DNA from: Sphingobium sp.
GTDB taxonomy: Bacteria > Pseudomonadota > Alphaproteobacteria > Sphingomonadales > Sphingomonadaceae
DNA: 64,000 bases
Direction of reading: 5' to 3'
NCBI GenBank assembly: GCA_009360885.1
Contig: SPEL01000002.1
Location: forward strand, 682,001 to 746,000
How positions within the stretch are numbered: position 1 is the stretch's first letter; every line of letters starts with the position of its first letter. Of this stretch, positions 42,977-63,731 are shown piece after piece. The position numbers and the translations under genes are program-made. Below the pieces are notes generated by a model. The model saw only the letters and a program-made list of their open reading frames with translations, made no database searches and was not told where the DNA came from.

Positions 42977-43052
42977 GCCGCTTTAGCTCAGTTGGTAGAG
43001 CACATCATTCGTAATGATGGGGCCACAGGTTCGAGTCCTGTAAGCGGCACCA
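42977..43052 (+). tRNA. tRNA-Thr (anticodon CGT)
   Basis: A full cloverleaf is visible. The acceptor arms GCCGCTT/AAGCGGC pair, with discriminator A and encoded CCA (43050-43052). The D stem is GCTC/GAGC. The anticodon stem CATCA/TGATG holds loop TTCGTAA with CGT at 43010-43012, reading ACG. The T stem is ACAGG/CCTGT with TTCGAGT. Its 3' half is the integration target of the mobile elements to the right. Confidence 0.97.
43008..43052 (+). repeat. att core, left copy (tRNA 3' half)
   Basis: These 45 bases recur exactly at 55860-55904, starting in the anticodon loop and ending with CCA. Upstream of 43008 the two sites differ at once. Integrases of this type use the 3' end of tRNA genes, so the copies bound element 1. 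Confidence 0.9.
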
Positions 43053-43340
43053 CCTTCCTAGAGATACATTAGCAAGGAAATAGGCGGACTTAGCTGCGGA
43101 AGTGCCTTTGCGTGGGACGCTCTCTGGGTAATGTCTGGGTGATGCTTCCGCCCAATGGCCCGGTCTGACCCACGATAAAGGCCGTTAGCTTCAATAGCAT
43201 TGCGGCTTACTGCTGGAAGTGGGTTAATGCGCTTCAATGCAGAACGCCATCACCCCACCGTGCCGAACAAAACAGGGAAAAGGGGTAAAAGGGGTGATTT
43301 CACCTGTTTCCCTGTTTTACCCCTTTTGCTTGGCGTCGGG
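43053..43340. other. Conserved left end of element 1 with candidate integrase arm sites
   Basis: About 90% identical to 55905-56190. It contains tandem CTGGGTAATG and CTGGGTGATG (about 43125-43147), a candidate arm-type or host-factor site, and from 43264 a hairpin block with AAAACAGGGAAA/TTTCCCTGTTTT arms and a TTACCCCTTTT tail. No gene is seen. Confidence 0.65.
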
Positions 43341-43453
43341 GCGGGGCAACAACGGGTCCGCACCCACCGTCAGCACTTTAGGGCTACCGCCTCAGAGATG
43401 CTCCATTGCCATCGTGCCACCTCATCTTGTGGCTCAGTCTGTTTATCGCGCCT

Positions 43454-45090: not shown

Positions 45091-45318
45091 AGCCTACATG
45101 TTTTAGTTTGTCAATCGATGTAGTGATGCAGCAGTAGAACTTTCAGCTCTCGCAACAAGCCGTCAGTCTTTTTCATCATGAATGGTAACGGAACGATATA
45201 GTTAAGCAGCATAGCCGCATTTCACTGACACTCTCATGCGTCTCAACCGCTTTTGGCCAGCGGACGCTAATACCTGACAGTCGCCTAGCCACCCATTTCA
45301 ACATTCACGAAATGCACT

Positions 45319-45379
45319 GAATGAAGGCGGTCAAGGCGGTCGAACTGCACCCTCACCGCCTTCACCGCCCTGAAATCAC
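45319..45379. repeat. GGCGGT hairpin repeat, copy 1
   Basis: GAATGAAGGCGGTCAAGGCGG faces CACCGCCTTCACCGCCCTGA. Related blocks are at 48241 and 51273 in the same element. It lies just upstream of the structured RNA. Confidence 0.6.
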
Positions 45380-45401
45380 CCTGCCATGAAAAGTCGCAAA
45401 T

Positions 45402-45762
45402 GCCCTGCGCAAAGCGGGGTATCTTATATGGTAGGCGCAAAGCACCCTTGCGAAGTGGTGCGATAGGCGGCAAATAGCTCTGGCCTTGCGTGAAAGTCGC
45501 AAGGTGGGGCGTGAGAACCTCAACGAATGAACTCGGTTCCAGTTATCTGGGGCCGGGTGGCATGCGCGCATGTCCAGTCGGCTTCGGTCGATAAAGGCGC
45601 ATGCGCCTGTAATTCGTCAGGTTCTCAACATCCGGCTCAGGCCGCTGCCCCAAGAGGACATAGGGGTAGCCAGAGGTCATCAGCCAAACGCTCCCCGCAA
45701 TACGGCAGGGGGGCAATATGCACAGCATCCATATCATCACATCCGCTTTTGCGGCTGATCGC
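45402..45762 (+). ncRNA. Long structured RNA with covariation (copy 1), upstream of SHOCT-DUF805
   Basis: Helices seen: CCCTGC/GCGGGG with loop GCAAA (45403-45419); GCACC/GGTGC with GCGA tetraloop (45442-45461); CCTTGCG/CGCAAGG (45484-45504); long-range GAGAACCT/AGGTTCTC (45513-45520 with 45619-45626) and ACGAAT/ATTCGT (45523-45528 with 45612-45617); GCATGCGC/GCGCATGC (45560-45567 with 45597-45604), capped by a C(TTCG)G hairpin; GCTGCCCC/GGGGTAGC; a CCGC-TTTT-GCGG hairpin near the end. The homologue at 57096 changes both strands of the long-range and inner helices together, so RNA structure is selected. The DUF805 start codon is at 45804. Structured RNAs linked to DUF805 genes have been named before; identity is unchecked. 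Confidence 0.8.
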
Positions 45763-45803
45763 TGCGTGCCTGCCATTTTCCAAACATCATATGGAGATCA
45801 GCT

Positions 45804-46349
45804 ATGATCGACGAAAATGCAGTCAATCGCATTGAAGACCTGCACAAGCTCAAGGAAGCAGGTGTCATCACCGAAGAAGAATTTGATAAAGCCAAGCAGG
45901 AATTACTGTTTCGTCCTCGTCCAGCCAAGACCGCCAGCCAGAAGATGCAAGTCTTTTCTGGCGGTGCCAATGAACTGCCCGGTGATGATGATTTCATCGG
46001 CTGGATGTTTTTGCCCCTACGGAAATATGCGGACTTTGATGGACGCTCCTGCCGCAAAGAATATTGGATGTTTGCACTACTCTACATAGCAGCACTCTTT
46101 ATCGGCGGCGTGTTTTCCATTGCTTCGGTTGAACTAGGCATGACATTGATGTCCCTATTCATCCTTGCGGTATTTATTCCGACAGTCGCCGTACAGGTAC
46201 GACGGATGCACGATCAGGACAAGAGCGGCTGGTTCGTGCTGTTCAACATCATCCCGTATGTCGGCTGGATCATTGGCATCATTTTCATGCTGATTGACGG
46301 CACTGAAGGCGACAACCGTTACGGCCCTGACCCCAAGGGCCGGGCATGA
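45804..46349 (+). CDS. SHOCT-DUF805 membrane protein
   Basis: 181 residues. Residues 1-36 are a SHOCT domain (RIEDLHKLKEAGVITEEEFDKAKQELL). Residues about 62-178 are DUF805: YADFDGRSCRKEYWMF, then three to four membrane helices, then VQVRRMHDQDKSGWFVL, IDGTEGDNRYGPDP. DUF805 function is unknown; it is a helical membrane domain. The gene sits at the head of a run of small membrane genes, directly behind the structured RNA. GGAG is 8 bases upstream. The homologue at 57500 is about 60% identical. Confidence 0.9.
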   Translation: MIDENAVNRIEDLHKLKEAGVITEEEFDKAKQELLFRPRPAKTASQKMQVFSGGANELPGDDDFIGWMFLPLRKYADFDGRSCRKEYWMFALLYIAALFIGGVFSIASVELGMTLMSLFILAVFIPTVAVQVRRMHDQDKSGWFVLFNIIPYVGWIIGIIFMLIDGTEGDNRYGPDPKGRA

Positions 46350-48159: not shown

Positions 48160-48240
48160 CCACACTCACCCCACCCATGAAATACAGGGGGCGGCATCCG
48201 TTAATTTAACCGGGTGTGTGCATGTTTTCTGGGATGGGCC

Positions 48241-48351
48241 GAATGAAGGCGGTCAGGGCGGTCAGGGCGGCACCGCCTTCGCCGCCTTGGTTGGGGCAGC
48301 TTCGTCGGAATTACACACCGCCCTCGCCGCCTTCGCCGCCCTGAAATCACC
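48241..48351. repeat. GGCGGT hairpin repeats before replicase 1
   Basis: GAATGAAGGCGGTCAGGGCGG repeats its GGCGGTCAGGG unit twice, then faces two inverted CACCGCC/CGCCGCC blocks. It is the largest of three such blocks and could be a replication or transcription signal for the gene at 48740. Confidence 0.6.
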
Positions 48352-48739
48352 CTCAGCGGGGAGAAATTCCTCCAACAGCGAGGGGTGACTGAAACGAACA
48401 AATCAATACAAAAAAGCTAAGTTAATAAATATCCAATTTTGATTGTTAATTCATAGAATGAAAATATGCAATAGACCGCTTACAAGAAAGTCTGGAATAT
48501 AATAATATTCAATGTTTTCAATAACTTGAAACATGGTTGGTTTAACCCTGTCAAGGGTAAGAACGGCAACCGAGAAAAGCATGTCATCGCACTGTTTTTA
48601 GCTGCCGTACGTTGCATTTTAGCAACACCAGCCGAGGGCTGGAAATATATGATTTTATTACCCGTTCATAATTGAACCAGCGGTTTTCAATCATATTATT
48701 TTCGCCTTCCTCATCACCCATATAATGAGGATATTTATT
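48352..48739. other. AT-rich leader of replicase 1
   Basis: About 390 bases, strongly AT-rich from 48400 to 48570. A loose hairpin TTGCATTTTAGCAA lies near 48610. No gene is seen. An AT-rich tract next to GC hairpins before a replicase is the usual layout of an origin, which is inference. Confidence 0.4.
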
Positions 48740-51214
48740 ATGTCTGCCGCACATAATTTACCTGAAATTGACTTCTCAAAATTACTTAATACTGAAGCCA
48801 TAAAATTGAGTAATGCTAATTTCATCAACAATATATTTACTGAATTACCCGAAGGCGTTATATCAACTATTTGCACCAAGCCCGGAGACCCCGGAAACGG
48901 CGGCTGGTTTGCTCAAAATGGCGATGATATTGCGACGAAGTGCCTGCCCAAAAATAATAATTACTTCAACTGCTCCAGCTTCCGGGCCGGAGAAGGCGGG
49001 GGCGTATACGCGCGTAAAGAGAATTTCCACGCCTATCATACGGTCGTCTTTGACGATGTGGGCACCAAAGTGCCGCGTGGGGCACTGGGAGAGCTGAAAC
49101 CGTCTTGGGAGCTTGAAACAAGCACCGGCAATTATCAGGTTGGCATTATACTCGACCCACCGTTGACGGACGCCGCACAGGTAAAGGCATTGCAGGACGC
49201 TATTATCGCAAAGGGTCTATGCGACCCCGGTGCCAATGGCGTTGCACGTTGGGCAAGGCTCCCCGAAGCCATTAACGGCAAGCCTAAATATATGAAGGAC
49301 AATCAGCCATTCCGCTGTAAGTTAACGGCTTGGAATCCTGATGTGCGGATGAGCATGGAGGCGCTGGCTAAGGCTCTCGACCTCAACCTTGCTCCAGCCC
49401 CTAAACGCACCCTCGCCCCTGCAGCACAAAAAGCAACCACGGCATTTGAGGGCAATGCTGTTTACTCGCCCAAACCAGTCGTCAATCCCGTCATTGCCGC
49501 ACTGATGGAAAAAGGTTGGTATAAAGGCCATGCTGGCGAAGGGAGGCATGATATAAGCTGCCCGTGGGTCAGCGAGCATACGGATCAAATCGACAATGGC
49601 TCTACCTATTTTGAGCCGAGCTTCGATTTTCCCGAAGGCGGCTTCAAATGCCATCATTCGCATGGTGATAAATATAAGCTGCGCCAGCTTCTAGCTGAAT
49701 TGAAGATCAGTTCCGCTGCGGCCCGGTGCAAGGCTATGGTCAAAATGGACACAGGCGATCAGTATCTTGTGAATGACGCGATGCAGCGCATTCTGGCAGC
49801 GCCGGGTGATATTTATCACGCCGAAGGCCAGTTAGTACGGGTCACAAAGTCCGCCTTCGGTAAGGCAGCATCCGTCAAACCACTAGCACAGATTGAGGTT
49901 CTGGACATTCTTTCTGAGCATGCGGTTTGGCTGAAATATGACGCCCGCAGCAAAGGCTATAAAAGCTGTGGACTGGATGACCGCCTGATAAGGATGGTTA
50001 TGCAGGCTGGGAATTATCCTTATCTTCCTCAGCTCAATTGCCTTGCCCATCAGCCCTTTTTGCGGCCTGATCGTTCACTTGTAATGGCCCCCGGCTATGA
50101 TGTGCAGACGGGCATTTATGCCGATTTCGACCCGGCATTGTTTCCCGTTCCTGATGCGCCAACCCGTGATGACGCGATGCAGGCCATGGGCGTATTGGAA
50201 CGCCTCCTCTGCGAATTTCATTTCGCATCGCAAGAGGATAAAGCGGCAGCATATTCGATGCTTTTAACGGGCGCAATCCGCTCCGGACTTCCTGTGGCCC
50301 CTGCCTTTAATATTACGGCATCGAACATGGGGACCGGGAAAAGCCTATTGGCACAAATTGCTGCACTCTTTGCTGGTGCAGCCCCTCCTTTCATGGGGAC
50401 CTATCCCACCAGTCAGGATGAAGCCCGTAAGCTGACCACATCAGCCTTTCGGGATCAGCCGCATTCCATCATTTTTGATGATATGAAAAGGGACTGGATC
50501 CCCTATGGCCCCCTCAACAAAATGCTCACCAGTGAAACTGTTTCCGACAGATTGCTGGGGTCCAGCCGCAACGTAACCGTTAACACCCGCGCATTAATCA
50601 TCGGAACGGGGAACAACATAGCCCCCATTGATGATATGGCACGCCGCGTTGTGACGATTAGGATTGAGCCAGCCAGCGAGACCCCTTCTACGCTGGTTTA
50701 TCAAGGCACGCCTTTGAAAACCACAAAGCAGAACCGGGAAAAATACGTGTCAGCAGCCTTAACGATTGTCCGGGCCTACATAGCAGCGGGCACTCCACAG
50801 GCTGATGTTTCCTCAATCGCCACTTATGACGATTGGAATATGTTGTGCCGTCATTCGCTGATCTGGCTTGGCAAACCGGACCCAGCACAAAGCCTTTTCA
50901 ATCAGTTGAAGGAAGACCCCGAAAGGCAGCTATTTGGTCTGGTAATGCAACACTGGCATGAACAGCATGGTAGCAGCACGAAGACTGTGCGGGAAATATT
51001 GGAGCCAAGCCACAATTATCTCAGCAACGATGCACTCTCCAATGCATTGGAAGACCTGATGGGCACCAATCTCAATGAGATTAATCGCACAAAGTTCGGC
51101 CAAATGCTCGGCAGGCATAGGGGGCAAGTCATGCACGGTCTAAAGATTGAGCAGGTTAATGCAGGCAAAGGTCGCACTGCATGGCGGGTCATTGAAATCG
51201 CTAACGAAAACTAA
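48740..51214 (+). CDS. RepB-type primase fused to an AAA+/SF3-like helicase (replicase of element 1)
   Basis: About 824 residues. The N-terminal third is a RepB-like primase-polymerase domain: KPGDPGNGGWFAQNG, VVFDDVGTKVPRG, ELETSTGNYQVGIIL, and GVARWARLPEAINGKPK. A middle region (from about 255) has Cys/His motifs (HDISCPWVSEHTD, FKCHHSHGDKY) that may bind zinc. The C-terminal third has Walker A TGKS near residue 531, Walker B IIFDDM near 577, and a sensor-like IIGTGNN near 623. It should start and unwind element replication. Start is 48740 (TGAGG upstream) rather than 48725. A terminator follows. Confidence 0.85.
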   Translation: MSAAHNLPEIDFSKLLNTEAIKLSNANFINNIFTELPEGVISTICTKPGDPGNGGWFAQNGDDIATKCLPKNNNYFNCSSFRAGEGGGVYARKENFHAYHTVVFDDVGTKVPRGALGELKPSWELETSTGNYQVGIILDPPLTDAAQVKALQDAIIAKGLCDPGANGVARWARLPEAINGKPKYMKDNQPFRCKLTAWNPDVRMSMEALAKALDLNLAPAPKRTLAPAAQKATTAFEGNAVYSPKPVVNPVIAALMEKGWYKGHAGEGRHDISCPWVSEHTDQIDNGSTYFEPSFDFPEGGFKCHHSHGDKYKLRQLLAELKISSAAARCKAMVKMDTGDQYLVNDAMQRILAAPGDIYHAEGQLVRVTKSAFGKAASVKPLAQIEVLDILSEHAVWLKYDARSKGYKSCGLDDRLIRMVMQAGNYPYLPQLNCLAHQPFLRPDRSLVMAPGYDVQTGIYADFDPALFPVPDAPTRDDAMQAMGVLERLLCEFHFASQEDKAAAYSMLLTGAIRSGLPVAPAFNITASNMGTGKSLLAQIAALFAGAAPPFMGTYPTSQDEARKLTTSAFRDQPHSIIFDDMKRDWIPYGPLNKMLTSETVSDRLLGSSRNVTVNTRALIIGTGNNIAPIDDMARRVVTIRIEPASETPSTLVYQGTPLKTTKQNREKYVSAALTIVRAYIAAGTPQADVSSIATYDDWNMLCRHSLIWLGKPDPAQSLFNQLKEDPERQLFGLVMQHWHEQHGSSTKTVREILEPSHNYLSNDALSNALEDLMGTNLNEINRTKFGQMLGRHRGQVMHGLKIEQVNAGKGRTAWRVIEIANEN

Positions 51215-51224
51215 GCGCCTTCGT

Positions 51225-51258
51225 CCACCGGGGCATGAGCGGTCCCGGTGGGCATTTT
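51225..51258 (+). terminator. Terminator after replicase 1
   Basis: CCACCGGG pairs with CCCGGTGG (8 bp), followed after a short spacer by TTTT. It lies 10 bases past the stop. Confidence 0.75.
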
Positions 51259-51272
51259 CTAGTTTCCTGAAA

Positions 51273-51335
51273 TGGGCCGAATGAAGGCGGTCAGGGCGGT
51301 CAGGGTGGCACCACCTTCGCCGCCTTCACCGCCCT
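51273..51335. repeat. GGCGGT hairpin repeat after replicase 1
   Basis: GGCCGAATGAAGGCGGTCAGG copies the start of the block at 48235-48260, and an inverted CCACCTTCGCCGCCTTCACC follows. With 48241 it brackets the replicase. Confidence 0.6.
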
Positions 51336-51543
51336 GTTTCGCGGGTTTTGCGAAAACAGTGAATATGACCGGCGGGCCAGTTTCAGGACGCAGCATGTCC
51401 GGCTGGCCCCCACAGTCCGCCAGAGGGCCATTTGCGCCCTCGGCGTCACCATACCCCCACCGGCGGCGACTTCCTGCCTGCTGCCTTAGTCAAAACCCAT
51501 TTTTGTAATGCGTGAGGCCATGGCCCGCGCCCGGAGAGCACCC

Positions 51544-52689
51544 ATGCCCAAAATGAAACTCACCGCATCCTTCTGCGCCATTGCCGATTGCGATTCTGAC
51601 CGGAAACGCACTGATTTTTACGACACAGGTATCACCGGTTTTGTGCTGGAATGCCATCAATCCGGCCATAAAAGCTATACCTTCCGCTATCATGATGAAA
51701 CGAAACGCCAACGTCAGATTAAAATCGGGAACTATGCTGATGTGACGTTCGATCAGGCCAAGCGAAAGGCGAAAGAATTACGCTCATCCGTCACCCTTGG
51801 CGGTGATCCGGTGGCCGTAAAGCAAGAGAAGAAGGCGGTCCCGCTCTATTCGCAGTTGGCAGAGCAACACCTTGCCCATGCGCGGACATATCAGAAGACG
51901 CCCGCCAATGTGGAACGTATCATCCGCATCCATCTGCTGCCACGGTGGGGCCGGATGCGGCTGACGGACATCAAGACGCAGGACATTGCCCTATGGCTGG
52001 CCGAGAAAGATATGGCTCCGGCAACCATCGAGAAGATCCGTATCACCTTCAATCGGTCATTCGAGCTGGCCGCAAAGTGGGGCATGGCGGGGGCCGATGT
52101 TAATCCGGTCAAGGCTGTTCCCCGCAAACGGTTCAGTAACGCCCGTGAACGGTTCCTCACGGCCAAGGATGTCGAACGGTTAAAGGTCGCGGTGGATGCC
52201 TCGGCCAACAAGCAACTGAAGCATATTGTGCCGCTGTTGCTGCTGACGGGCGCACGGAAGACCGAACTCCTTACCGCCCGGTGGGAGCATATAGACATGG
52301 AGCGACGGTCATGGCTTATCCCCACCAGCAAGACCGGCAAACATCGCTATGTGCCGCTATCACAACCAGCTATGGACATCATTGCTGCCCTGCCCCGGTT
52401 CGATGGCTGCCCGTGGCTGTTGCCCAATCCCGATACGCTGAAACCCTATACCGGAATCAAGCGCGCTTGGGATACGGCACGGAAAGCGGCAGGCCTTCCT
52501 GATGTAAGGGTCCATGATCTTCGCCACAGCGCAGCATCCTTCATGATTAACGCAGGGGTAGACCTTTATGCCGTTGGCCGCATCCTCGGCCATGCAGACC
52601 ACAAATCTACTATGCGCTATAGCCACCTAGCCAACGATACGCTGCGCGCTGCAGTCGAGGCAGGGGCATCCCGCATGAACGCAGCATAA
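51544..52689 (+). CDS. int: P4-type tyrosine integrase of element 1
   Basis: About 381 residues. N-terminal arm-binding domain: TDFYDTGITGFVLECHQSGHK and KIGNYADVTFDQAKRKAKELR. The catalytic domain has the Arg in TGARKTELLTARWEHID, HDLRHSAASF, and LGHADHKSTMRYSHL with the nucleophilic Tyr. It catalyses recombination between the tRNA-Thr site and the element. Start 51544 (GGAGAG upstream) aligns with the homologue at 62574; upstream in-frame ATGs do not. The copy at 62574 is about 92% identical. It lies 3.2 kb from the right att and 8.5 kb from the tRNA, instead of beside att as in many P4-type islands. Confidence 0.93.
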   Translation: MPKMKLTASFCAIADCDSDRKRTDFYDTGITGFVLECHQSGHKSYTFRYHDETKRQRQIKIGNYADVTFDQAKRKAKELRSSVTLGGDPVAVKQEKKAVPLYSQLAEQHLAHARTYQKTPANVERIIRIHLLPRWGRMRLTDIKTQDIALWLAEKDMAPATIEKIRITFNRSFELAAKWGMAGADVNPVKAVPRKRFSNARERFLTAKDVERLKVAVDASANKQLKHIVPLLLLTGARKTELLTARWEHIDMERRSWLIPTSKTGKHRYVPLSQPAMDIIAALPRFDGCPWLLPNPDTLKPYTGIKRAWDTARKAAGLPDVRVHDLRHSAASFMINAGVDLYAVGRILGHADHKSTMRYSHLANDTLRAAVEAGASRMNAA

Positions 52690-54750: not shown

Positions 54751-55017
54751 ATGTCTGCTGTTGCGAAAAGAACCGTCAGCTTACCAAGCGATCAGGCCGC
54801 TTTCATTGATGCCAAGGTTCAGTCAGGTGACTATGCATCGGCCAGTGAAGTCGTTCGGGCTGGACTGCGGGCATTGAAGGAACGAGATGAGGCTGTCGAA
54901 CGCTGGCTGAGCGGTGAAGTGGCAATGAGCTATGACGCGATGAAGGCAGATCCTTCACGGGCTATTTCGGTTGATGATGCCTTCGCCAGTGTTCGCGCTC
55001 AACACATGAAACGATAA
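54751..55017 (+). CDS. parD: ParD-family antitoxin without a matching downstream toxin
   Basis: 88 residues. Residues 5-50 are the ParD ribbon-helix-helix region: KRTVSLPSDQAAFIDAKVQSG and YASASEVVRAGLRAL. The C-terminus should bind a ParE toxin. Unusually no ParE follows on this strand; the ParE-like gene that follows is on the opposite strand and already has its own antitoxin. GGAGG is 7 bases before the ATG. Likely an orphan antitoxin or a third component. Confidence 0.85.
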   Translation: MSAVAKRTVSLPSDQAAFIDAKVQSGDYASASEVVRAGLRALKERDEAVERWLSGEVAMSYDAMKADPSRAISVDDAFASVRAQHMKR

Positions 55018-55023
55018 CAGCTA

Positions 55024-55314
55024 TCAATTCATTCTCTCGGCTGGCCATTGGCGGGCAGCATGGAGGATACGCAATATTCGGATGCTGTCAGCCATCACAT
55101 CATAAACGATGATGTAATTCTGATGTGCAACCAGTTCACGGGTCCCCGGCACTCTACCCACTCGGCCTATAGAGGGATGATCGGCAAGGCGGCTGACCTT
55201 TTCGGTGAAGAGTTCATCCAACGCCAAGGCTGCATGAGGATTGTCAGCCTCGATATAGTCATAAATGGCCTCTCGGTCCGCAAGGGCAAGTGCCGTCCAA
55301 GATAGCTGCATCAT
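55024..55314 (-). CDS. parE: ParE/RelE-family toxin
   Basis: 96 residues. It reads as ParE: WTALALADREAIYDYIEADNP and FTEKVSRLADHPSIGRVGRVPGTRELV, then NYIIVYDVMADSIRILRILHAARQWP. The family either poisons gyrase (ParE) or cuts mRNA (RelE); the sequence leans toward ParE. Its start overlaps the antitoxin stop by ATGA, so it is the second gene of the minus-strand pair. Convergent and end-to-end with parD (6 bases between). Confidence 0.88.
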   Translation of the reverse strand: MMQLSWTALALADREAIYDYIEADNPHAALALDELFTEKVSRLADHPSIGRVGRVPGTRELVAHQNYIIVYDVMADSIRILRILHAARQWPAERMN

Positions 55315-55859: not shown

Positions 55860-55904
55860 TTCGTAATGATGGGGCCACAGGTTCGAGTCCTGTAAGCGGC
55901 ACCA
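55860..55904 (+). repeat. att core, junction copy between the two elements
   Basis: It is identical to 43008-43052. Only the 3' half of the tRNA is present, so it is not a functional tRNA gene. It marks the right end of element 1 and the left end of element 2. Confidence 0.9.
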
Positions 55905-56190
55905 CCTTCCTAGAGATACATTAGCAAGGAAATGCGCGGGCTTAGCTGTGGAAGTGCCTTTGCATGGGACGCACTCTGGGTAACGTCTGGGTGATGCTTC
56001 CGCCCAATGACCCGGCCTGACCCACGATAAAGGCCGTTAGCTTCAATGGCGTTGCGGCATCCTGCTGGAAGTGGGTTAATGCGCTTCCATGCAGCACCCG
56101 TCGCCACCCCACCGTGCCGAACAAAACAGGTAAAAGGGGTAATTTCACCTGTTTCCCTGTTTTACCCCTTTATTCGGCGTCGAGTGGGGC
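55905..56190. other. Conserved left end of element 2
   Basis: Homologous to 43053-43340 with about 10% differences, including CTGGGTAACG/CTGGGTGATG direct repeats. From 56117 it has the AACAAAACAGGT...ACCTGTTT hairpin and CCCTGTTTTACCCCTTTT tail. Confidence 0.65.
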
Positions 56191-56241
56191 AGTAGTGACG
56201 ACAAAACCGCATCAAAGTTTCTTGTAGCTTAAAACCTCACT

Positions 56242-57095: not shown

Positions 57096-57456
57096 GCCCT
57101 GCGCAAAGCGGGGTATCTTATATGGTAGGCGCAAAGCACCCTTGCGAAGTGGTGCGATAGACGGCAAATAGCTCTGGCCTTGCGTGAAAGTCGCAGGGTG
57201 GGGCGTCGAAACCTCAAACACACAGGCTCGGTTCCAGTTTCTGGGGCCGGGTGGCACGTATGTATGTCCAGTCGGCTTCGGTCGATAAAGATACGTGCGC
57301 CTGTCTGTGTGTCAGGTTTCGAACATCCGGCTCAGGCCGCTGCCCCAAGAGGACATAGGGGTAGCCAGAGGTCATCAGCCAAAACGCTCCCCGCATTACG
57401 GCAGGGGGGCAATATGCACAGCATCCACATCATCACATCCGCTTTTGCGGCTGGTC
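57096..57456 (+). ncRNA. Long structured RNA with covariation (copy 2), upstream of SHOCT-DUF805
   Basis: The 5' block with GCAAA and GCGA loops is almost identical to copy 1. The long-range helices are rewritten: CGAAACCT/AGGTTTCG (57207-57214 with 57314-57321), ACACACAG/CTGTGTGT (57218-57225 with 57305-57312) and GCACGTAT/ATACGTGC (57254-57261 with 57291-57298). Each still pairs perfectly, which is covariation. The C(TTCG)G hairpin, GCTGCCCC/GGGGTAGC and CCGCTTTTGCGG elements are unchanged. The DUF805 start is at 57500. Confidence 0.8.
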
Positions 57457-57499: not shown

Positions 57500-58051
57500 A
57501 TGATCGACGAAAATGCAGTCAGGCGCATTGAAGACCTGCACAAGCTCATGGAAGCGGGCGTTATCACCGCTGAGGACTTCGAGAAGGCAAAACAAGATCT
57601 GCTGTTCAGGCCAAAGCAGCGCAGCTTTACACCGCTCTCCCCATCCACGACAAAACCTGATCCCGACAATGAAGCTGCATGGGCGATACTCCCCCTGCAA
57701 CGCTATGCAGACTTTGAAGGCCGGTCCTGCCGTCAGGAGTTCTGGGCCTATTTCATGATGCAATTTCTGATCGTCATGGTCAGCTTTGCCCTGATGGGAC
57801 TATCCTTCATTGATTCCCCCTTCTTCAGCGCAATCTGGATGACCTTGCTGGTGCTGGCAGTCGCCGCCACTATCGTGCCAAACATCGCGGTTCAGGTCAG
57901 ACGCTTTCACGATCAGGACAAAAGCGGCTGGTTCGTGCTGCTCAACCTCATCCCCTATCTGGGCTGGATCATCGTCCTCATCTTCATGATGCTCGAAGGG
58001 ACCAAGGGTGACAATCGCTTTGGCCCTGACCCGTTGGAGGATCAGGCATGA
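57500..58051 (+). CDS. SHOCT-DUF805 membrane protein
   Basis: 183 residues. SHOCT at residues 1-36 (RRIEDLHKLMEAGVITAEDF), then DUF805 (FEGRSCRQEFWAY, VQVRRFHDQDKSGWFVLLN, LEGTKGDNRFGPDP) with three to four membrane helices. It is about 60% identical to the 45804 protein. GGAG is 8 bases before the ATG. Its stop overlaps the next start (ATGA), so the downstream membrane gene is coupled. Confidence 0.9.
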   Translation: MIDENAVRRIEDLHKLMEAGVITAEDFEKAKQDLLFRPKQRSFTPLSPSTTKPDPDNEAAWAILPLQRYADFEGRSCRQEFWAYFMMQFLIVMVSFALMGLSFIDSPFFSAIWMTLLVLAVAATIVPNIAVQVRRFHDQDKSGWFVLLNLIPYLGWIIVLIFMMLEGTKGDNRFGPDPLEDQA

Positions 58052-59242: not shown

Positions 59243-59334
59243 CCACGCTCACCCCACCCATGAAATACAGGGGGGCGGCATCCGTTAATTTAACCGCCCC
59301 GGTCGCAGCGCCACGCCATCGCGCCGTCACCGGC

Positions 59335-59394
59335 CCGAACAAAAGGGGGAAAGGGGGATTTTACCTGCTTCCCTCTTTTACCCCTTTTGTTCGG
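59335..59394. repeat. Long hairpin before replicase 2
   Basis: CCGAACAAAAGGGG (59335-59348) pairs perfectly with CCCCTTTTGTTCGG (59381-59394). Inside lie GGGAAAG...CTTCCC elements. A homologue brackets the replicase at 62309. Element 1 has different GC-rich hairpins in these places. Confidence 0.65.
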
Positions 59395-59764
59395 CCCCTC
59401 GGCGGGGGCGAATCAGCTCAGGTGCGGTCCGCTGGGGAGTCGAAGTGACCAAACGCTACATCACCCACCACAAACCGCGAGGCAAAATCACAAGGAAACA
59501 GTAATACACTGTTATTAAACGATTATTTTATGAAATGAATCGATTTCAGGCATGTCTTCTAGTCGGTTCTTGACCGTTTTTTTGACAAGGTTTAATATAG
59601 GTATCGAAAAAATTCTATCAAGGCCTTGAAATTGAAAATATATCAAAGTTAACAAAATAATAATTTATCTGTTGCGTCTATTTATTTCTTAACTAGAGAC
59701 GCCTCCCCGCCCTTGAACCAGCATGATTGTTCAGGGCTTACTGCAAAATGGAGGCGCATACAGG
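59395..59764. other. AT-rich leader of replicase 2
   Basis: The stretch 59500-59700 is strongly AT-rich. At 59697-59758 GACGCCTCC faces GGAGGCG with an inner CCCTTGAAC/GTTCAGGG hairpin, which covers the upstream in-frame ATG at 59723 and part of the ribosome-binding site. No gene is seen. Confidence 0.4.
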
Positions 59765-62257
59765 ATGGATCCGGCAACTGCTCTAACGGAAACATTTTAT
59801 AATCATTCACAGAACGACAACAACAAACTTGATGGGGTCATTGTATCCAATGAAGATTTCATCAATACTATCTTTAACGGCTTACCAGAAGGAATAAGCA
59901 CAGCTATTTGCACCAAACCCGGAGACCCCGGAAACGGCGGCTGGTTTGCTCAAAATGGCAATAATGTTACGACGAAGTGCCTGCCCCAAAATAATAATTA
60001 CTTCAACTGCTCCAGCTTCCGGGTGGGAGGGAACGAAGACGTACAGGCGCGGAAAGAGAATTTCCATGCCTATCACGCCATCCTCCTTGACGATGTTGGC
60101 ACCAAGGTGTCGCGTGAGGCATTAGGAGGACTGAAAGCGTCGTGGGATATTGAGACAAGCCCCGGCAATCATCAGGTTGGTATTATACTCGACCCGCCGT
60201 TGACGGACGCCGCACAGGTGAAGGCATTGCAGGATGCTATTATCGCAAAGGATCTGTGCGACCCCGGTGCCAATGGCGCTGCACGTTGGGCAAGGCTTCC
60301 CAATGCCATCAATGGTAAGGAGAAATATCGCACCAATGGCCAGCCATTTCGCTGCAAGCTGACGGCGTGGAACCCTGATGTGCGGATGAGTATGGATGAA
60401 CTGGTTAAGGCTCTCGACCTCAACCTTGCGCCACGTCCACTCACCATTGCAAACCAAGCGGTCACCACGCACCTTGCACCAGCCGAGGAAGGCTCCAGCG
60501 TTTATGCCCCTGCCCCGGTTACAAACCCGGTCATCGCAGCGTTAATGGCAAAAAGCATGTACAAAAAGGCACTTGGTGAAGGGCGGCATGACATAAGCTG
60601 CCCAAAAGTTGAAGATCACACAGACCAATTGGATGATGGGACCGTCTACTTCGAGCCTAGCCGTGCCTTCCCCATGGGTGGGGCAAAATGCTTTCACAAG
60701 CATGGTAGGGATTTCAGCATCATGAAACTATTGAATTTTCTGGATGTCCATCCCATTGATGCTCGCTGCACACCCCAGATCGCCTTGGTCCCCGGACTGC
60801 AATATCTGATAGTAGAGGCAGGCGTGAAGGCGCTGGCACGGAATGAGAATGTTTACCAAACGGGCGGAGCGCTCACTTCACTCCGCACCGACACAATCTC
60901 TAGCAAGCTGACACCCACCGTAATTGATGAGACAGCACTCGGCAGCCTGTTATCTGAAGCCGCCAGTTGGATCACCTTCGATGGAAAACAAAAGGAACGG
61001 CGATTAACCAATCCACCCGAACGTATTGTACGCGCCATAATGAAAAGCCCTAATTATGCGAACATTCGTTTGCTCAATGGCGTGGCACATCAGCCCTTTT
61101 TCCGTTCAGATGGAAGCATTGTAACCAATCCCGGTTACGATCAGAAGACTGGTATCTATGCCGATTTTGATGGCAATGACTTCCCGATAGAGGCCAATCC
61201 ATCGCGTGAGGATGCTGAAAAAGCCTTGGTGGAACTTATTGGCTTATTGGAGGAATTTCCCTTTGCATCAGCCGAGGATAAAAGCGCTGCCCTTGCTGCG
61301 ATGCTTACAGCCGCCGTTCGCTCTACCTTATCGCTGGCACCAGCCTTCAACCTGACAGCATCGGATGCAGGCAGTGGGAAAAGCTATCTGGCTAGCATCA
61401 TTGCCCGGTTCAACACCCCTATGCATCCCATAATGGCAACATATCCGGCGAATAAGGAGGAGGCCGAAAAGTCCATGCTGGCTCACGGTCTGGATTCAAA
61501 CGCACCCATCATATTCGACGATATGCAGGGTGACTGGTATCCTTTTGGCACGATGAATAAGATACTGACCAGCGAATGGATCAGCGGACGTATTCTGGGG
61601 CAAAGCAAAACGGTCAGCGTCAGTACAAAGCGACTGGTAATCGGCACGGGCAACAATAGTGCGCCTATTGCTGATATGTGCCGAAGGGTTGTCACTTGCC
61701 GCCTGTCAGCGGATTGTGCGAACCCTGCCCTGCGGACATTTAAAGGCAATCCCGAAGATGTGGTGAGAGAGAAGCGCAATCACTTTGTGACTCTGGCCCT
61801 CACTATCATCATGGCCTATCGCAAAGCCGGTTCACCTAAAGCCAACGCGCCATCCATCGCCACTTATGGGCAATGGAGCGACATGTGCAGACAGCCGCTG
61901 CTGTGGCTGGGCCTTGCTGACCCGGCATCCAGCCTGATCTCGCAGTTGAAGTCGGACCCCGACAAGGAAGACTTTGGGGTTGTGCTTGCACGCTGGCACG
62001 ACCTTCATGGTGACAAGCCTATGCTTCTTCGCAAATTGCTGGAGTTCGACATGAGCAACCAAGCCAATGAGCTGGAATATGCCATATCCGACTTACCCGT
62101 GATGGAGCGCGGCAATATTAACCACCATAAGCTGGGTTGGTTGTTCAGAAGGCGGGCAGGCCAACAGGTCAACGGGTACAAGCTGGAAAAGGCTGACCAC
62201 TCTGAACGCAACGCATGGCGCGTTGTGAAAGTTGAGCCAAAACCAGCGGCAAACTGA
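59765..62257 (+). CDS. RepB-type primase fused to an AAA+/SF3-like helicase (replicase of element 2)
   Basis: About 830 residues. The N-terminal primase-like part is close to replicase 1 (CTKPGDPGNGGWFAQNG, ILLDDVGTKVSRE, GAARWARLPNAINGK). The middle has the same Cys/His pattern (HDISCPKVEDH, KCFHKHGRD). The helicase part has Walker A GSGKS near residue 536, Walker B IIFDDM near 581 and IGTGNN. The C-terminal two thirds are much less similar than the N-terminus. Start 59765 has GGAGG 10 bases upstream; 59723 is an alternative. Confidence 0.85.
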   Translation: MDPATALTETFYNHSQNDNNKLDGVIVSNEDFINTIFNGLPEGISTAICTKPGDPGNGGWFAQNGNNVTTKCLPQNNNYFNCSSFRVGGNEDVQARKENFHAYHAILLDDVGTKVSREALGGLKASWDIETSPGNHQVGIILDPPLTDAAQVKALQDAIIAKDLCDPGANGAARWARLPNAINGKEKYRTNGQPFRCKLTAWNPDVRMSMDELVKALDLNLAPRPLTIANQAVTTHLAPAEEGSSVYAPAPVTNPVIAALMAKSMYKKALGEGRHDISCPKVEDHTDQLDDGTVYFEPSRAFPMGGAKCFHKHGRDFSIMKLLNFLDVHPIDARCTPQIALVPGLQYLIVEAGVKALARNENVYQTGGALTSLRTDTISSKLTPTVIDETALGSLLSEAASWITFDGKQKERRLTNPPERIVRAIMKSPNYANIRLLNGVAHQPFFRSDGSIVTNPGYDQKTGIYADFDGNDFPIEANPSREDAEKALVELIGLLEEFPFASAEDKSAALAAMLTAAVRSTLSLAPAFNLTASDAGSGKSYLASIIARFNTPMHPIMATYPANKEEAEKSMLAHGLDSNAPIIFDDMQGDWYPFGTMNKILTSEWISGRILGQSKTVSVSTKRLVIGTGNNSAPIADMCRRVVTCRLSADCANPALRTFKGNPEDVVREKRNHFVTLALTIIMAYRKAGSPKANAPSIATYGQWSDMCRQPLLWLGLADPASSLISQLKSDPDKEDFGVVLARWHDLHGDKPMLLRKLLEFDMSNQANELEYAISDLPVMERGNINHHKLGWLFRRRAGQQVNGYKLEKADHSERNAWRVVKVEPKPAAN

Positions 62258-62308
62258 CACTCTCACCTTCGGGGCGGGCAACTGCCTCGAAGCTCTGCCG
62301 TCACCGAC

Positions 62309-62376
62309 CCGAACAAAAGGGGGAAAAGGGGGAAAGGGGGATTTTACCTGTTTCCCTCTTTTACCCCTTTTATCCG
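62309..62376. repeat. Long hairpin after replicase 2
   Basis: CCGAACAAAAGGGGG lies opposite CCCCTTTTATCCGG, with an extra GGGAAAAGGGG unit. It is homologous to 59335-59394. Together they bracket replicase 2. Confidence 0.65.
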
Positions 62377-62573
62377 GCCCCTCGCCGGGGCGATGCACGG
62401 CCCCGCAGCCACTGCATCTGGCCCATCTCCCCACAGCGCCCCACACGCCCATTTCGGCACCGGGGCATCCCCATCCCCCACCGGCGGCGGCTTCGTGCCT
62501 GCTGCCTTAGTCAAAATCCATTTTTGTAATGCGTGGCTCTGCGCCCGCTCCACCCCATTGAGGAGATATAGTC

Positions 62574-63731
62574 ATGCCTAAGATGAAACTTACCGCACCC
62601 TTCTGCACCATTGCCGATTGCGATGCAGACCGGAAACGCACTGATTTTTACGACACAGGCATCACTGGCTTTGTGCTGGAGTGCCACCAATCAGGTCATA
62701 AGTCCTACACCTTCCGTTACCATGATGAAACGGGACGGCAACGACAGACTAAAATTGGGAACTATACTGATGTGACGTTCGATCAGGCCAAACGGAAGGC
62801 TAAGGAATTGCGGTCCTCCGTCACCCTTGGCGGTGATCCTGTAGCGGTGAAGCAGGAGAAGAAGGCCGTGCCGCTCTACAGTCAGCTTGCAGAACAGCAT
62901 CTGGCTCATGCACGGACCTATCAGAAGACCCCGGCCAATACCGAAAGCATCCTCCGCCTGCATCTGCTGCCCCGTTGGGGACGGATGAGGCTGACCGACA
63001 TTAAGACACAGGACATTGCCCTGTGGCTGGCAGAAAAGGATATGGCCCCGGCCACCATCGAAAAGATACGCATTACGTTCAACCGTTCGTTCGAGTTGGC
63101 GGCTAAATGGGGGATGGCAGGGTCCGAGGTAAACCCGGTCAAGGCTGTTCCCCGTAAACGCTATAGCAATGCACGGGAACGGTTCCTCACCGCTAAAGAG
63201 GTCGAGCGATTAAAAGGGGCGCTGGAGGCATCGGGGAATACACAACTCCGGTTCATTGTGCCGCTGTTGCTGCTAACCGGCGCACGCAAGACGGAGCTGC
63301 TAACCGCCCGGTGGGAACATATCGACATGGAACGGCGCTCATGGCTCATTCCCACCAGCAAAACCGGCAAGCATCGCTATGTGCCGCTATCGCAACCAGC
63401 CGTTGACATCATCACTGCCTTGCCACGGTTTAAGGACTGTCCGTGGCTATTGCCCAATCCGGACACGCACAAGCCCTATACAGGCATCAAACGGGCATGG
63501 GAGACGGCAAGAAAGGCAGCGGGGTTGCCAGATGTACGGGTGCATGACCTTCGCCATAGTGCGGCATCGTTCATGATTAACGCCGGGGTCGATCTATACG
63601 CCGTTGGCCGCATCCTCGGTCATGCGGATCATAAATCCACCATGCGCTATTCGCACCTTGCCAATGATACACTGCTCGCAGCCGTCGAAGCAGGCGCATC
63701 ACGCATGAATGCCTCTGTAAAGGCCGCTTAA
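62574..63731 (+). CDS. int: P4-type tyrosine integrase of element 2
   Basis: 385 residues, about 92% identical to the 51544 integrase. Catalytic residues are intact (TGARKTELLTARWEHID, HDLRHSAASF, GHADHKSTMRYSHL). GGAG stands 10 bases upstream of the ATG. The adjoining 60 bases upstream (CTGCTGCCTTAGTCAAAA..TTTTTGTAATGCGTG) are also conserved before both integrases, and may be a promoter or a binding site. Confidence 0.93.
   Translation: MPKMKLTAPFCTIADCDADRKRTDFYDTGITGFVLECHQSGHKSYTFRYHDETGRQRQTKIGNYTDVTFDQAKRKAKELRSSVTLGGDPVAVKQEKKAVPLYSQLAEQHLAHARTYQKTPANTESILRLHLLPRWGRMRLTDIKTQDIALWLAEKDMAPATIEKIRITFNRSFELAAKWGMAGSEVNPVKAVPRKRYSNARERFLTAKEVERLKGALEASGNTQLRFIVPLLLLTGARKTELLTARWEHIDMERRSWLIPTSKTGKHRYVPLSQPAVDIITALPRFKDCPWLLPNPDTHKPYTGIKRAWETARKAAGLPDVRVHDLRHSAASFMINAGVDLYAVGRILGHADHKSTMRYSHLANDTLLAAVEAGASRMNASVKAA

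What the first reader, a model, noticed from the sequence alone, without database searches (positions are those of the whole stretch)
45402..45762. Structured RNA with extensive covariation at the head of SHOCT-DUF805 operons
Seen: copies at 45402-45762 and 57096-57456 share identical GNRA and C(TTCG)G loops. Their long-range helices differ on both strands at once: GAGAACCT/AGGTTCTC becomes CGAAACCT/AGGTTTCG, ACGAAT/ATTCGT becomes ACACACAG/CTGTGTGT, and GCATGCGC/GCGCATGC becomes GCACGTAT/ATACGTGC. About ten pairs are compensated, and none breaks pairing. Proteins elsewhere in the two elements have diverged, so this is selection on RNA structure. It has about eight helices over roughly 330 bases, larger than ordinary riboswitches. 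Structured RNA motifs associated with DUF805 genes have been reported in comparative surveys; whether this is one of them cannot be told here. Inference: the RNA is a regulatory or scaffolding element of the operon.
Basis: partly seen in the sequence, partly recalled or inferred. Interest (0 to 1): 0.9.

Follow-up and report, generated by a model that had tools for sequence, protein, structure and literature searches.

The report
Phage-type immunity RNA with built-in target
The two structured RNAs are real: they look like relatives of the antisense "immunity" RNAs of phages P1 and P4, here fused to their own target sequence, placed at the head of mobile-element operons and many other bacterial genes, and not found in the RNA family database as searched.

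Summary
In detail: two 91%-identical leaders with ten two-sided compensated pairs in the three named helices and none broken. The core is 132-133 nt (45505-45636, 57199-57331). Upstream is promoter-like DNA; downstream lies a ribosome-site hairpin and a 29-codon uORF overlapping the SHOCT-DUF805 start.

DUF805 is not the theme. Covariance models find the RNA in 135 of 397 genomes of the family, 26 of 385 of the class and 51 of 398 of the phylum (own genome included), upstream of varied genes (16 of 103 ECF sigma factors, 6 of 103 DUF805). The window copies match nothing in Rfam. Distant members show what it is: the 3' half has the architecture of C4 antisense RNA and sRNA-Xcc1 (outer stem, two hairpins, two antisense segments), and both models hit the same places. 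The 5' half is the complementary target. Unlike P1 C4, no second target downstream was detected.

Best reading: an antisense attenuator of the P1-C4/P4-CI kind with built-in target, controlling a P4-like integrative element. The two tandem elements differ in the antisense/target pairs, as expected of heteroimmune relatives. Homology is strong; immunity, processing and the switch are inferred. A riboswitch is the main rival.

The parts
42977..43049 (+). tRNA-Thr (CGT), integration site of the first element
43008..43054 (+). att core copy 1 (47 nt, exact repeat)
55860..55906 (+). att core copy 2, junction between the two tandem elements
45448..45450 (+). TTG of the conserved -35-like box of the leader's promoter (copy 1)
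   Evidence: 33 of 35 relatives have TTG at -70 to -50 of the core; transcription not shown
45484..45504 (+). 5' hairpin CCTTGCG/CGCAAGG of the leader
45505..45636 (+). RNA core, copy 1 (models R1, R2)
45505..45522 (+). H1 hairpin of the target half; its loop TGAGAA (45512-45517) pairs with TTCTCA (45622-45627) = helix P1
45523..45528 (+). variable target strand ACGAAT, pairs with loop ATTCGT (45612-45617) = helix P2
45532..45557 (+). P3 hairpin (CTCGG/CCGGG), competes with the outer stem for 45553-45557
45553..45635 (+). C4-like half: outer stem CCGGGTG (45553-45559)/CATCCGG (45629-45635), pseudoknotted with P1 and P2
45560..45604 (+). P4 (45560-45567/45597-45604) with hairpin P4b and the conserved ATGTCCA / TAAAG internal loop = hairpin 1 of C4
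45606..45621 (+). P5 hairpin CCTG/CAGG whose loop is the antisense strand of P2 = hairpin 2 of C4
   Evidence: 100% of cells paired, 3 of 4 pairs compensated
45644..45670 (+). hairpin GCTGCCCC/GGGGTAGC; 5' strand can also pair with the leader's 5' GGGGCG
45691..45713 (+). hairpin CTCCCC/GGGGGG holding the likely ribosome site of the uORF
   Evidence: sequence
45718..45807 (+). 29-codon uORF, stop overlaps the DUF805 start codon; translation not shown
45804..46349 (+). SHOCT-DUF805 gene, copy 1
57142..57144 (+). TTG of promoter-like box, copy 2
57199..57331 (+). RNA core, copy 2 with changed recognition helices
57414..57503 (+). 29-codon uORF, copy 2
57500..58051 (+). SHOCT-DUF805 gene, copy 2
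48725..51214 (+). primase-type replication protein, element 1
   Evidence: (below Pfam cut-off)
59723..62257 (+). primase-type replication protein, element 2
51508..52689 (+). tyrosine integrase, element 1
62574..63731 (+). tyrosine integrase, element 2

Best explanation
The leader is an antisense-attenuator RNA of the phage P1 C4 / phage P4 CI kind, with its target built in. The 3' half (outer stem, P4/P4b hairpin, P5 hairpin) is the C4-like antisense module. Its two recognition segments, the P5 loop and the UUNNNA strand, pair with two target segments in the 5' half (P2 strand and H1 loop). The leader is transcribed from its own promoter ahead of the element's operon (SHOCT-DUF805, small genes, primase). 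Pairing, in cis or by the module of another transcript with the same specificity, decides whether the 5' GGGGCG strand keeps the CGCCCC strand away from the ribosome site (or, in other lineages, whether a terminator forms). Expression of the operon is thus restrained and is blind to relatives of another specificity. Shown: structure, covariation, shared architecture and co-located model matches with sRNA-Xcc1/C4, built-in target, mobile-element context. Inferred: promoter use, processing, trans action, direction of the switch, immunity.
For: Rfam scan of distant member L143 gives sRNA-Xcc1 E 9e-4 and C4 E 0.02, each over the whole 87-position model, on the 3' half. Model R2 and RF02221 hit the same place at 6 sites over RF02221's cut-off and 5 below it; in 12 chosen genomes 11 of 16 RF02221 rows, all below cut-off, lie on R1/R2 hits. 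R2, including the target half, matches 15 of 20 RF02221 loci at E up to 5, 14 of them below 1e-3. Outer stem 97.9% paired, above every whole-strand shuffle (maximum 92.1%), though its pairs were not in the models. P5 loop against the built-in target: 18.2 versus 10.2 (sd 0.26) when partners are swapped, n=100; 16.7 versus 10.9 (sd 0.34), n=53. P1's own C4 shows a complementary pair of segments upstream, then a terminator-like hairpin (read by eye). The P2 strand is near random (0.31-0.36 identity) where unpaired columns are 80-90% identical and P4 is 0.80-0.87. Cognate duplex energies of the window copies -32.8 and -41.3 against -28.2 and -24.6 crossed. Of 8 relatives' stretches fetched, 7 carry the small ORF116 family and 6 the integrase.
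Against: The window copies themselves do not score with RF02221 or RF01695 (in some only 150 first-look candidates of the own genome were scored). The second target at the regulated gene's ribosome site, present in P1, is not detectable here (downstream 15.1 versus 14.8, sd 0.18, n=100, and 14.9 versus 15.1, sd 0.34, n=52). Above 90% identity of unpaired columns P2 is less extreme (0.52, n=26 pairs; 0.84, n=7). Orthogonality within genomes is not significant: 0 of 90 same-genome pairs share specificity, against 20 of 4960 between genomes. Many copies sit before host-type genes (ECF sigma, GGDEF), and their mobile context was not examined. No transcript data.
Confidence: 0.58

Rival explanations
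1. An orphan riboswitch: the pseudoknotted core binds a small molecule or second messenger and the exchangeable 3' platform (ribosome-site hairpin or terminator) reads it out.
For: Conserved unpaired segments not needed for antisense pairing: AUGUCCA and UAAAG are invariant in 35 sequences and vary little in others (for example CAAAG). One core with different platforms: CGCCCC/ribosome-site in sphingomonads, terminator-like hairpins plus T runs in L143-L145, L155 and L059 (by eye). Very diverse downstream genes including 4 GGDEF of 103.
Against: The 3' half is shared with sRNA-Xcc1/C4, and C4 is a known antisense RNA (PMC5320573, passages). The P2 stem is hypervariable. The GGDEF proteins look alike at their N-termini, so may not be independent.
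Confidence: 0.2
2. A trans-acting small RNA: the C4-like half is cut out (for example by RNase P) and regulates other mRNAs; the downstream gene is incidental.
For: sRNA-Xcc1 was mapped as an 88-nt species (PMC2996969, passages) and A. baumannii C4-like RNAs look processed (PMC5320573, passages). In many distant members the outer stem is followed by an ACCA-like end (by eye).
Against: The recognition loop matches the built-in target far better than swapped targets. A same-strand ORF candidate of at least 25 codons starts within 330 nt at 118 of 118 loci, by a permissive rule without a control.
Confidence: 0.13
3. A purely cis leader: a protein-binding or temperature-sensing structure without antisense action.
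For: Stable fold, ribosome site in a hairpin.
Against: Does not explain hypervariable, fully compensated P1/P2 or the C4 relationship.
Confidence: 0.09

Closest known systems
C4 antisense RNA of phages P1/P7 (RF01695)
   Same: Outer stem, two hairpins, two antisense segments; complementary target upstream in the same transcript; in P1 c4, icd and ant1/2 form one operon (PMC8198154, passages), here a uORF overlaps DUF805.
   Different: The members of this branch that were matched score below the Rfam cut-off; longer P4 with conserved AUGUCCA/UAAAG loop; no detectable second target at the regulated gene; downstream genes differ.
sRNA-Xcc1 (RF02221)
   Same: Same architecture; 6 loci over its cut-off are also matched by model R2; its loci too carry an upstream target.
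   Different: The window copies are not detected by RF02221; sphingomonad forms have the P3 hairpin where several RF02221 loci show a terminator-like hairpin between target and antisense half (by eye).
CI RNA / seqA of satellite phage P4, and IsrK
   Same: Antisense RNA in the leader of a replication operon, with a target upstream (PMC4825925, passages); the window elements carry integrase and a primase-type gene.
   Different: No seqC-like downstream target detected; homology to P4 CI was not tested; termination not shown.
c4-a1b1 motif (Weinberg 2010)
   Same: The name suggests C4 plus upstream target sequences.
   Different: Only its row in the main-text table was seen (PMC2864571: gamma-Proteobacteria, phages); details not available here.

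Membership tests
C4 / sRNA-Xcc1 as defined by Rfam | Score at or above the gathering cut-off | tested here: not met
   Window copies: none. In 12 chosen genomes the best RF02221 score is 42.1 bits against 53. So not filed as a member.
C4 / sRNA-Xcc1 superfamily | Outer stem enclosing two hairpins, second loop antisense | tested here: met
   (picked the best of small offsets, so its percentages are inflated)
C4 / sRNA-Xcc1 superfamily | Continuity: one locus matched by both models | tested here: met
   6 places over the RF02221 cut-off, 5 below; 15 of 20 RF02221 loci matched by R2 at E up to 5
C4 system of P1 | Complementary target upstream of C4 | tested here: met
C4 system of P1 | Second target at the regulated gene's ribosome site | tested here: not met
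   n=100 and n=52; one search shows only scattered short matches downstream of the window copies
C4 / CI | Processing by RNase P to a 70-90 nt RNA | not testable with these tools
   No transcript data
P4 CI immunity | Leader ahead of the satellite's replication gene | tested here: met
   Primase-type gene downstream on the same strand in both window elements; that it is one operon is inferred
Riboswitch | Specific ligand binding | not testable with these tools
   -
Riboswitch | Conserved core with exchangeable expression platforms | tested here: inconclusive
   Seen by eye in sequences; 5' strand against downstream strand 16.4 versus 15.2, sd 0.18
Reported DUF805 RNA motifs (recalled only) | Match to an Rfam model | tested here: inconclusive
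   No match; whether Rfam 15 holds such a motif was not checked

The most novel reading that the evidence does not exclude
A large, undescribed branch of phage-type antisense RNAs, self-contained because each carries its own target, has spread through Alphaproteobacteria (and apparently some Acidobacteria and Verrucomicrobia) as addressable switches: each transcript is controlled only by RNAs of the same address, giving mobile elements heteroimmunity and host genes (ECF sigma factors, diguanylate cyclases, surface proteins) private, copy-number-sensing control.
Probability: 0.3. Interest if true: 0.85.

Novelty: new variant of a known kind. Interest (0 to 1): 0.64.

Why it matters
It would tie together C4 RNA, sRNA-Xcc1 and a widespread leader that the Rfam models do not call at their cut-offs in the loci scanned here, suggest that sRNA-Xcc1 is part of a cis-regulatory unit, and offer a genome-readable marker of immunity type in P4-like elements of sphingomonads. 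The recognition code (P1 and P2) is simple enough to test directly by swapping a few bases.

Tried and rejected
DUF805-specific motif: rejected, since relatives precede ECF sigma/FecR/TonB operons, a resolvase and many other genes. Riboswitch as first choice: held until the permissive Rfam scan of L143 showed sRNA-Xcc1/C4; kept as rival. HDV-like ribozyme and IS110 bridge RNA: set aside by reasoning from recall, not tested. Selection for distinct specificities within one genome: tested, not significant. A second, downstream target as in P1: tested, not found. A third att copy closing element 2: not found by exact 20-mers in the 7 kb fetched nor genome-wide with up to 3 mismatches (the genome is about 80% complete). 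Solved structure of the element 1 primase-type protein by sequence: none at E up to 0.01. A search of the viral collection by protein was not made; one pattern scan gave 2 loci; the phage collection gave no match to the window copy, the plasmids 8 records. In one search one of 19 rows (L291) was misplaced and L299 left out; one search repeats the test with all 20.

Full report
OBSERVATION. The two leaders are 91% identical over 406 nt, with unrelated DNA further upstream. Both strands fold well below shuffles (z -6.9 and -7.0). In the own genome, about 80% complete, only these two copies were found (150 of 739 first-look candidates scored).

EXTENT. The part conserved in relatives is 132-133 nt (45505-45636, 57199-57331). 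A TTG(C) box lies at -70 to -50 of the core in 33 of 35 relatives (shuffled mean 9.1, maximum 17), so 45395-45477 is best read as promoter DNA. After the core come a hairpin, a hairpin over a likely ribosome site, and a 29-codon uORF, MHSIHIITSAFAA...GDQL, whose stop overlaps the SHOCT-DUF805 start in both copies.

DISTRIBUTION. A DNA search found 65 of 397 genomes of the family (29 of 96 genera). Covariance model R1 found 135 of 397 (52 of 96 genera) and 26 of 385 of the class. Model R2 found 51 of 398 of the phylum. The own genome is counted in each, and the class and phylum samples include some genomes of the family. I submitted 48 of these and 5 loci to R2; 53 of 53 matched at E up to 0.001 (the Rickettsia one is weak, 32.6 bits). 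Several are metagenome bins, where contamination is possible. Other collections: 8 plasmid records, no phage record, 2 viral contigs by pattern.

DOWNSTREAM GENES. At 118 loci I picked the best same-strand ORF by a permissive rule, dropped 15 doubtful ones, and scanned 103: 16 ECF sigma factors of the FecI type, 9 SHOCT, 6 DUF805, 4 GGDEF, 4 outer-membrane barrels, a few Cro/C1-type regulators. Plasmid annotations show sigma/FecR operons, two with TonB receptors, and a recombinase.

STRUCTURE. In A3 (35 sequences) 22 of 35 pairs have two-sided changes and 91.5% of cells pair, with the variable P2 poorly aligned (55.8%). In A6 (100 sequences, fitted to the model) 24 of 24 pairs and 96.7%. In A7 (53 loci, none identical to an A6 row; chosen by a sequence pattern or by R2, and fitted to R2) 21 of 24 and 97.3%. 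Three helices were not among the model pairs: the P5 hairpin (100% of cells in A3), the outer stem (97.9% against a shuffle maximum of 92.1%) and the H1 hairpin (its four inner pairs 98-100%, the outermost only 51 of 100; 89.4% overall against a shuffle maximum of 86.8%, loop length chosen per sequence). The outer stem and P1/P2 cross, so the fold is pseudoknotted. In sphingomonads P3 competes with the outer stem, a possible second state (inference).

IDENTITY. At Rfam gathering scores nothing matches either window copy, the RNA of 20 distant loci or that of 19 loci. With permissive settings the window's first copy and L226 give only chance-level matches, but L143 gives sRNA-Xcc1 (E 9e-4) and C4 (E 0.02), both over the full model and on the 3' half. 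In 200 genomes of the phylum RF02221 hits 43 (30 over cut-off). Six of its over-threshold places, and five below, coincide with R2 hits. In 12 chosen genomes 11 of 16 RF02221 rows at E up to 5, all below cut-off, lie on R1/R2 hits; the own genome has none. For RF01695 in the same 12 genomes 2 of 12 rows lie on R1 hits (G565), and the one match over cut-off, in the own genome, is elsewhere. R2, which includes the 5' half, matches 15 of 20 RF02221 loci at E up to 5 (14 below 1e-3). The antisense arm of these 20 loci pairs better than shuffled with upstream DNA (21.1 versus 17.5, sd 0.54, maximum 19.1) and downstream DNA (19.7 versus 17.3, sd 0.62, maximum 18.9, correcting). Phage P1's own C4 has complementary segments upstream, followed by a terminator-like hairpin, and again downstream (no shuffle test).

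HOW THIS BRANCH DIFFERS. The P5 loop pairs with its built-in target (18.2 versus 10.2, sd 0.26, n=100; 16.7 versus 10.9, sd 0.34, n=53) and not detectably with the 300 nt downstream (15.1 versus 14.8, sd 0.18, n=100; 14.9 versus 15.1, sd 0.34, n=52). Upstream 300 nt: 14.7 versus 14.5 (sd 0.2) and 15.6 versus 14.9 (sd 0.34, about equal to the highest of 100 shuffles), a weak unexplained signal. The ribosome site instead seems tied to the leader's 5' strand through a shared CGCCCC-type strand (16.4 versus 15.2, sd 0.18). In L143-L145, L155 and L059 a terminator-like hairpin with T run follows (read by eye).

RECOGNITION HELICES. At 80-90% identity of unpaired columns the P2 strand is 0.31-0.36 identical, little above random, while P4 is 0.80-0.87; above 90% the P2 values are 0.52 (26 pairs) and 0.84 (7 pairs). 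One pair from different genomes has 98% scaffold and 20% specificity identity. No same-genome pair shares specificity (0 of 90), but between genomes few do (20 of 4960), so this is not evidence of selection for orthogonality. For the window copies, crossed duplexes are weaker than cognate ones.

SETTING. Both elements carry a primase-type gene and a tyrosine integrase and share an exact 47-nt att repeat at tRNA-Thr(CGT). Of 8 relatives' stretches fetched, 7 have the ORF116 family, 6 the integrase, 4 a tRNA-Thr(CGT), 4 DUF805 and 2 the primase; some stretches end at contig ends, and L353 has none of these. This resembles a P4-like satellite or integrative element; packaging was not examined. 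The genome also has an ordinary C4 RNA (66.9 bits) before an ORF with a P22 antirepressor N-terminal domain.

LITERATURE. Passages seen: PMC5320573 (C4-like RNAs in A. baumannii, loops a' and b', RNase P), PMC4825925 (IsrK; P4 CI RNA pairing with seqA and seqC), PMC8198154 (P1 immI), PMC2996969 (sRNA-Xcc1, 88 nt), PMC12444791 (sRNA-Xcc1 upstream of symE in integron cassettes), PMC12189769, PMC2864571 (table row and STAXI passage), PMC11109978, PMC8632094, PMC9122126. Searches for DUF805 RNA motifs, Sphingomonadales riboswitch candidates and c4-a1b1 gave no report of this branch; of the sRNA-Xcc1 and C4 listings (18 and 15 papers) I opened only those named above; subscription papers and supplements were not searchable. 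That P1 and P7 differ in 4 nt of the recognition region is from PMC5320573; P4 versus phiR73 heteroimmunity is recall.

VERDICT. Real, widespread and not ordinary, but of a known kind. Homology to the C4/sRNA-Xcc1 superfamily about 0.9; antisense attenuation as the mechanism about 0.58; heteroimmunity and addressable control as wider roles are open.

Noticed in passing
G000:C2:33863-33952 (own genome; locus L355): An ordinary C4 antisense RNA (66.9 bits, over cut-off) ahead of an ORF with a P22 antirepressor N-terminal domain.
   Followed up: partly
L286-L305 (RF02221 loci): As a group, sRNA-Xcc1 loci pair with DNA upstream and downstream better than shuffled, and several show a terminator-like hairpin between target and antisense half; sRNA-Xcc1 thus looks like part of a cis-regulatory unit.
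   Followed up: partly
window 43251-43346, 56105-56191, 59323-59407, 62297-62390: Four copies of a repeat with AAGGGG-type units at element ends and around the element 2 primase gene; possible replication origin or packaging sites.
   Followed up: no
window 45296-45382, 48218-48353, 51256-51346: Three GGCGGTC / CCGCCTTC-rich repeats spaced about 3 kb apart, reported in element 1 only.
   Followed up: no
window 54751-55314: ParD-like antitoxin and ParE-like toxin genes on opposite strands in the cargo of element 1.
   Followed up: no
L120, L051/L153, L137, L124: Two copies of the RNA within 0.3-4.5 kb of each other; the second copies in L051/L153, L137 and L124 are weak matches.
   Followed up: no
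L138-L141: One genome with four copies, at least three of them before similar ~100-residue proteins; the one scanned matched no Pfam family.
   Followed up: no
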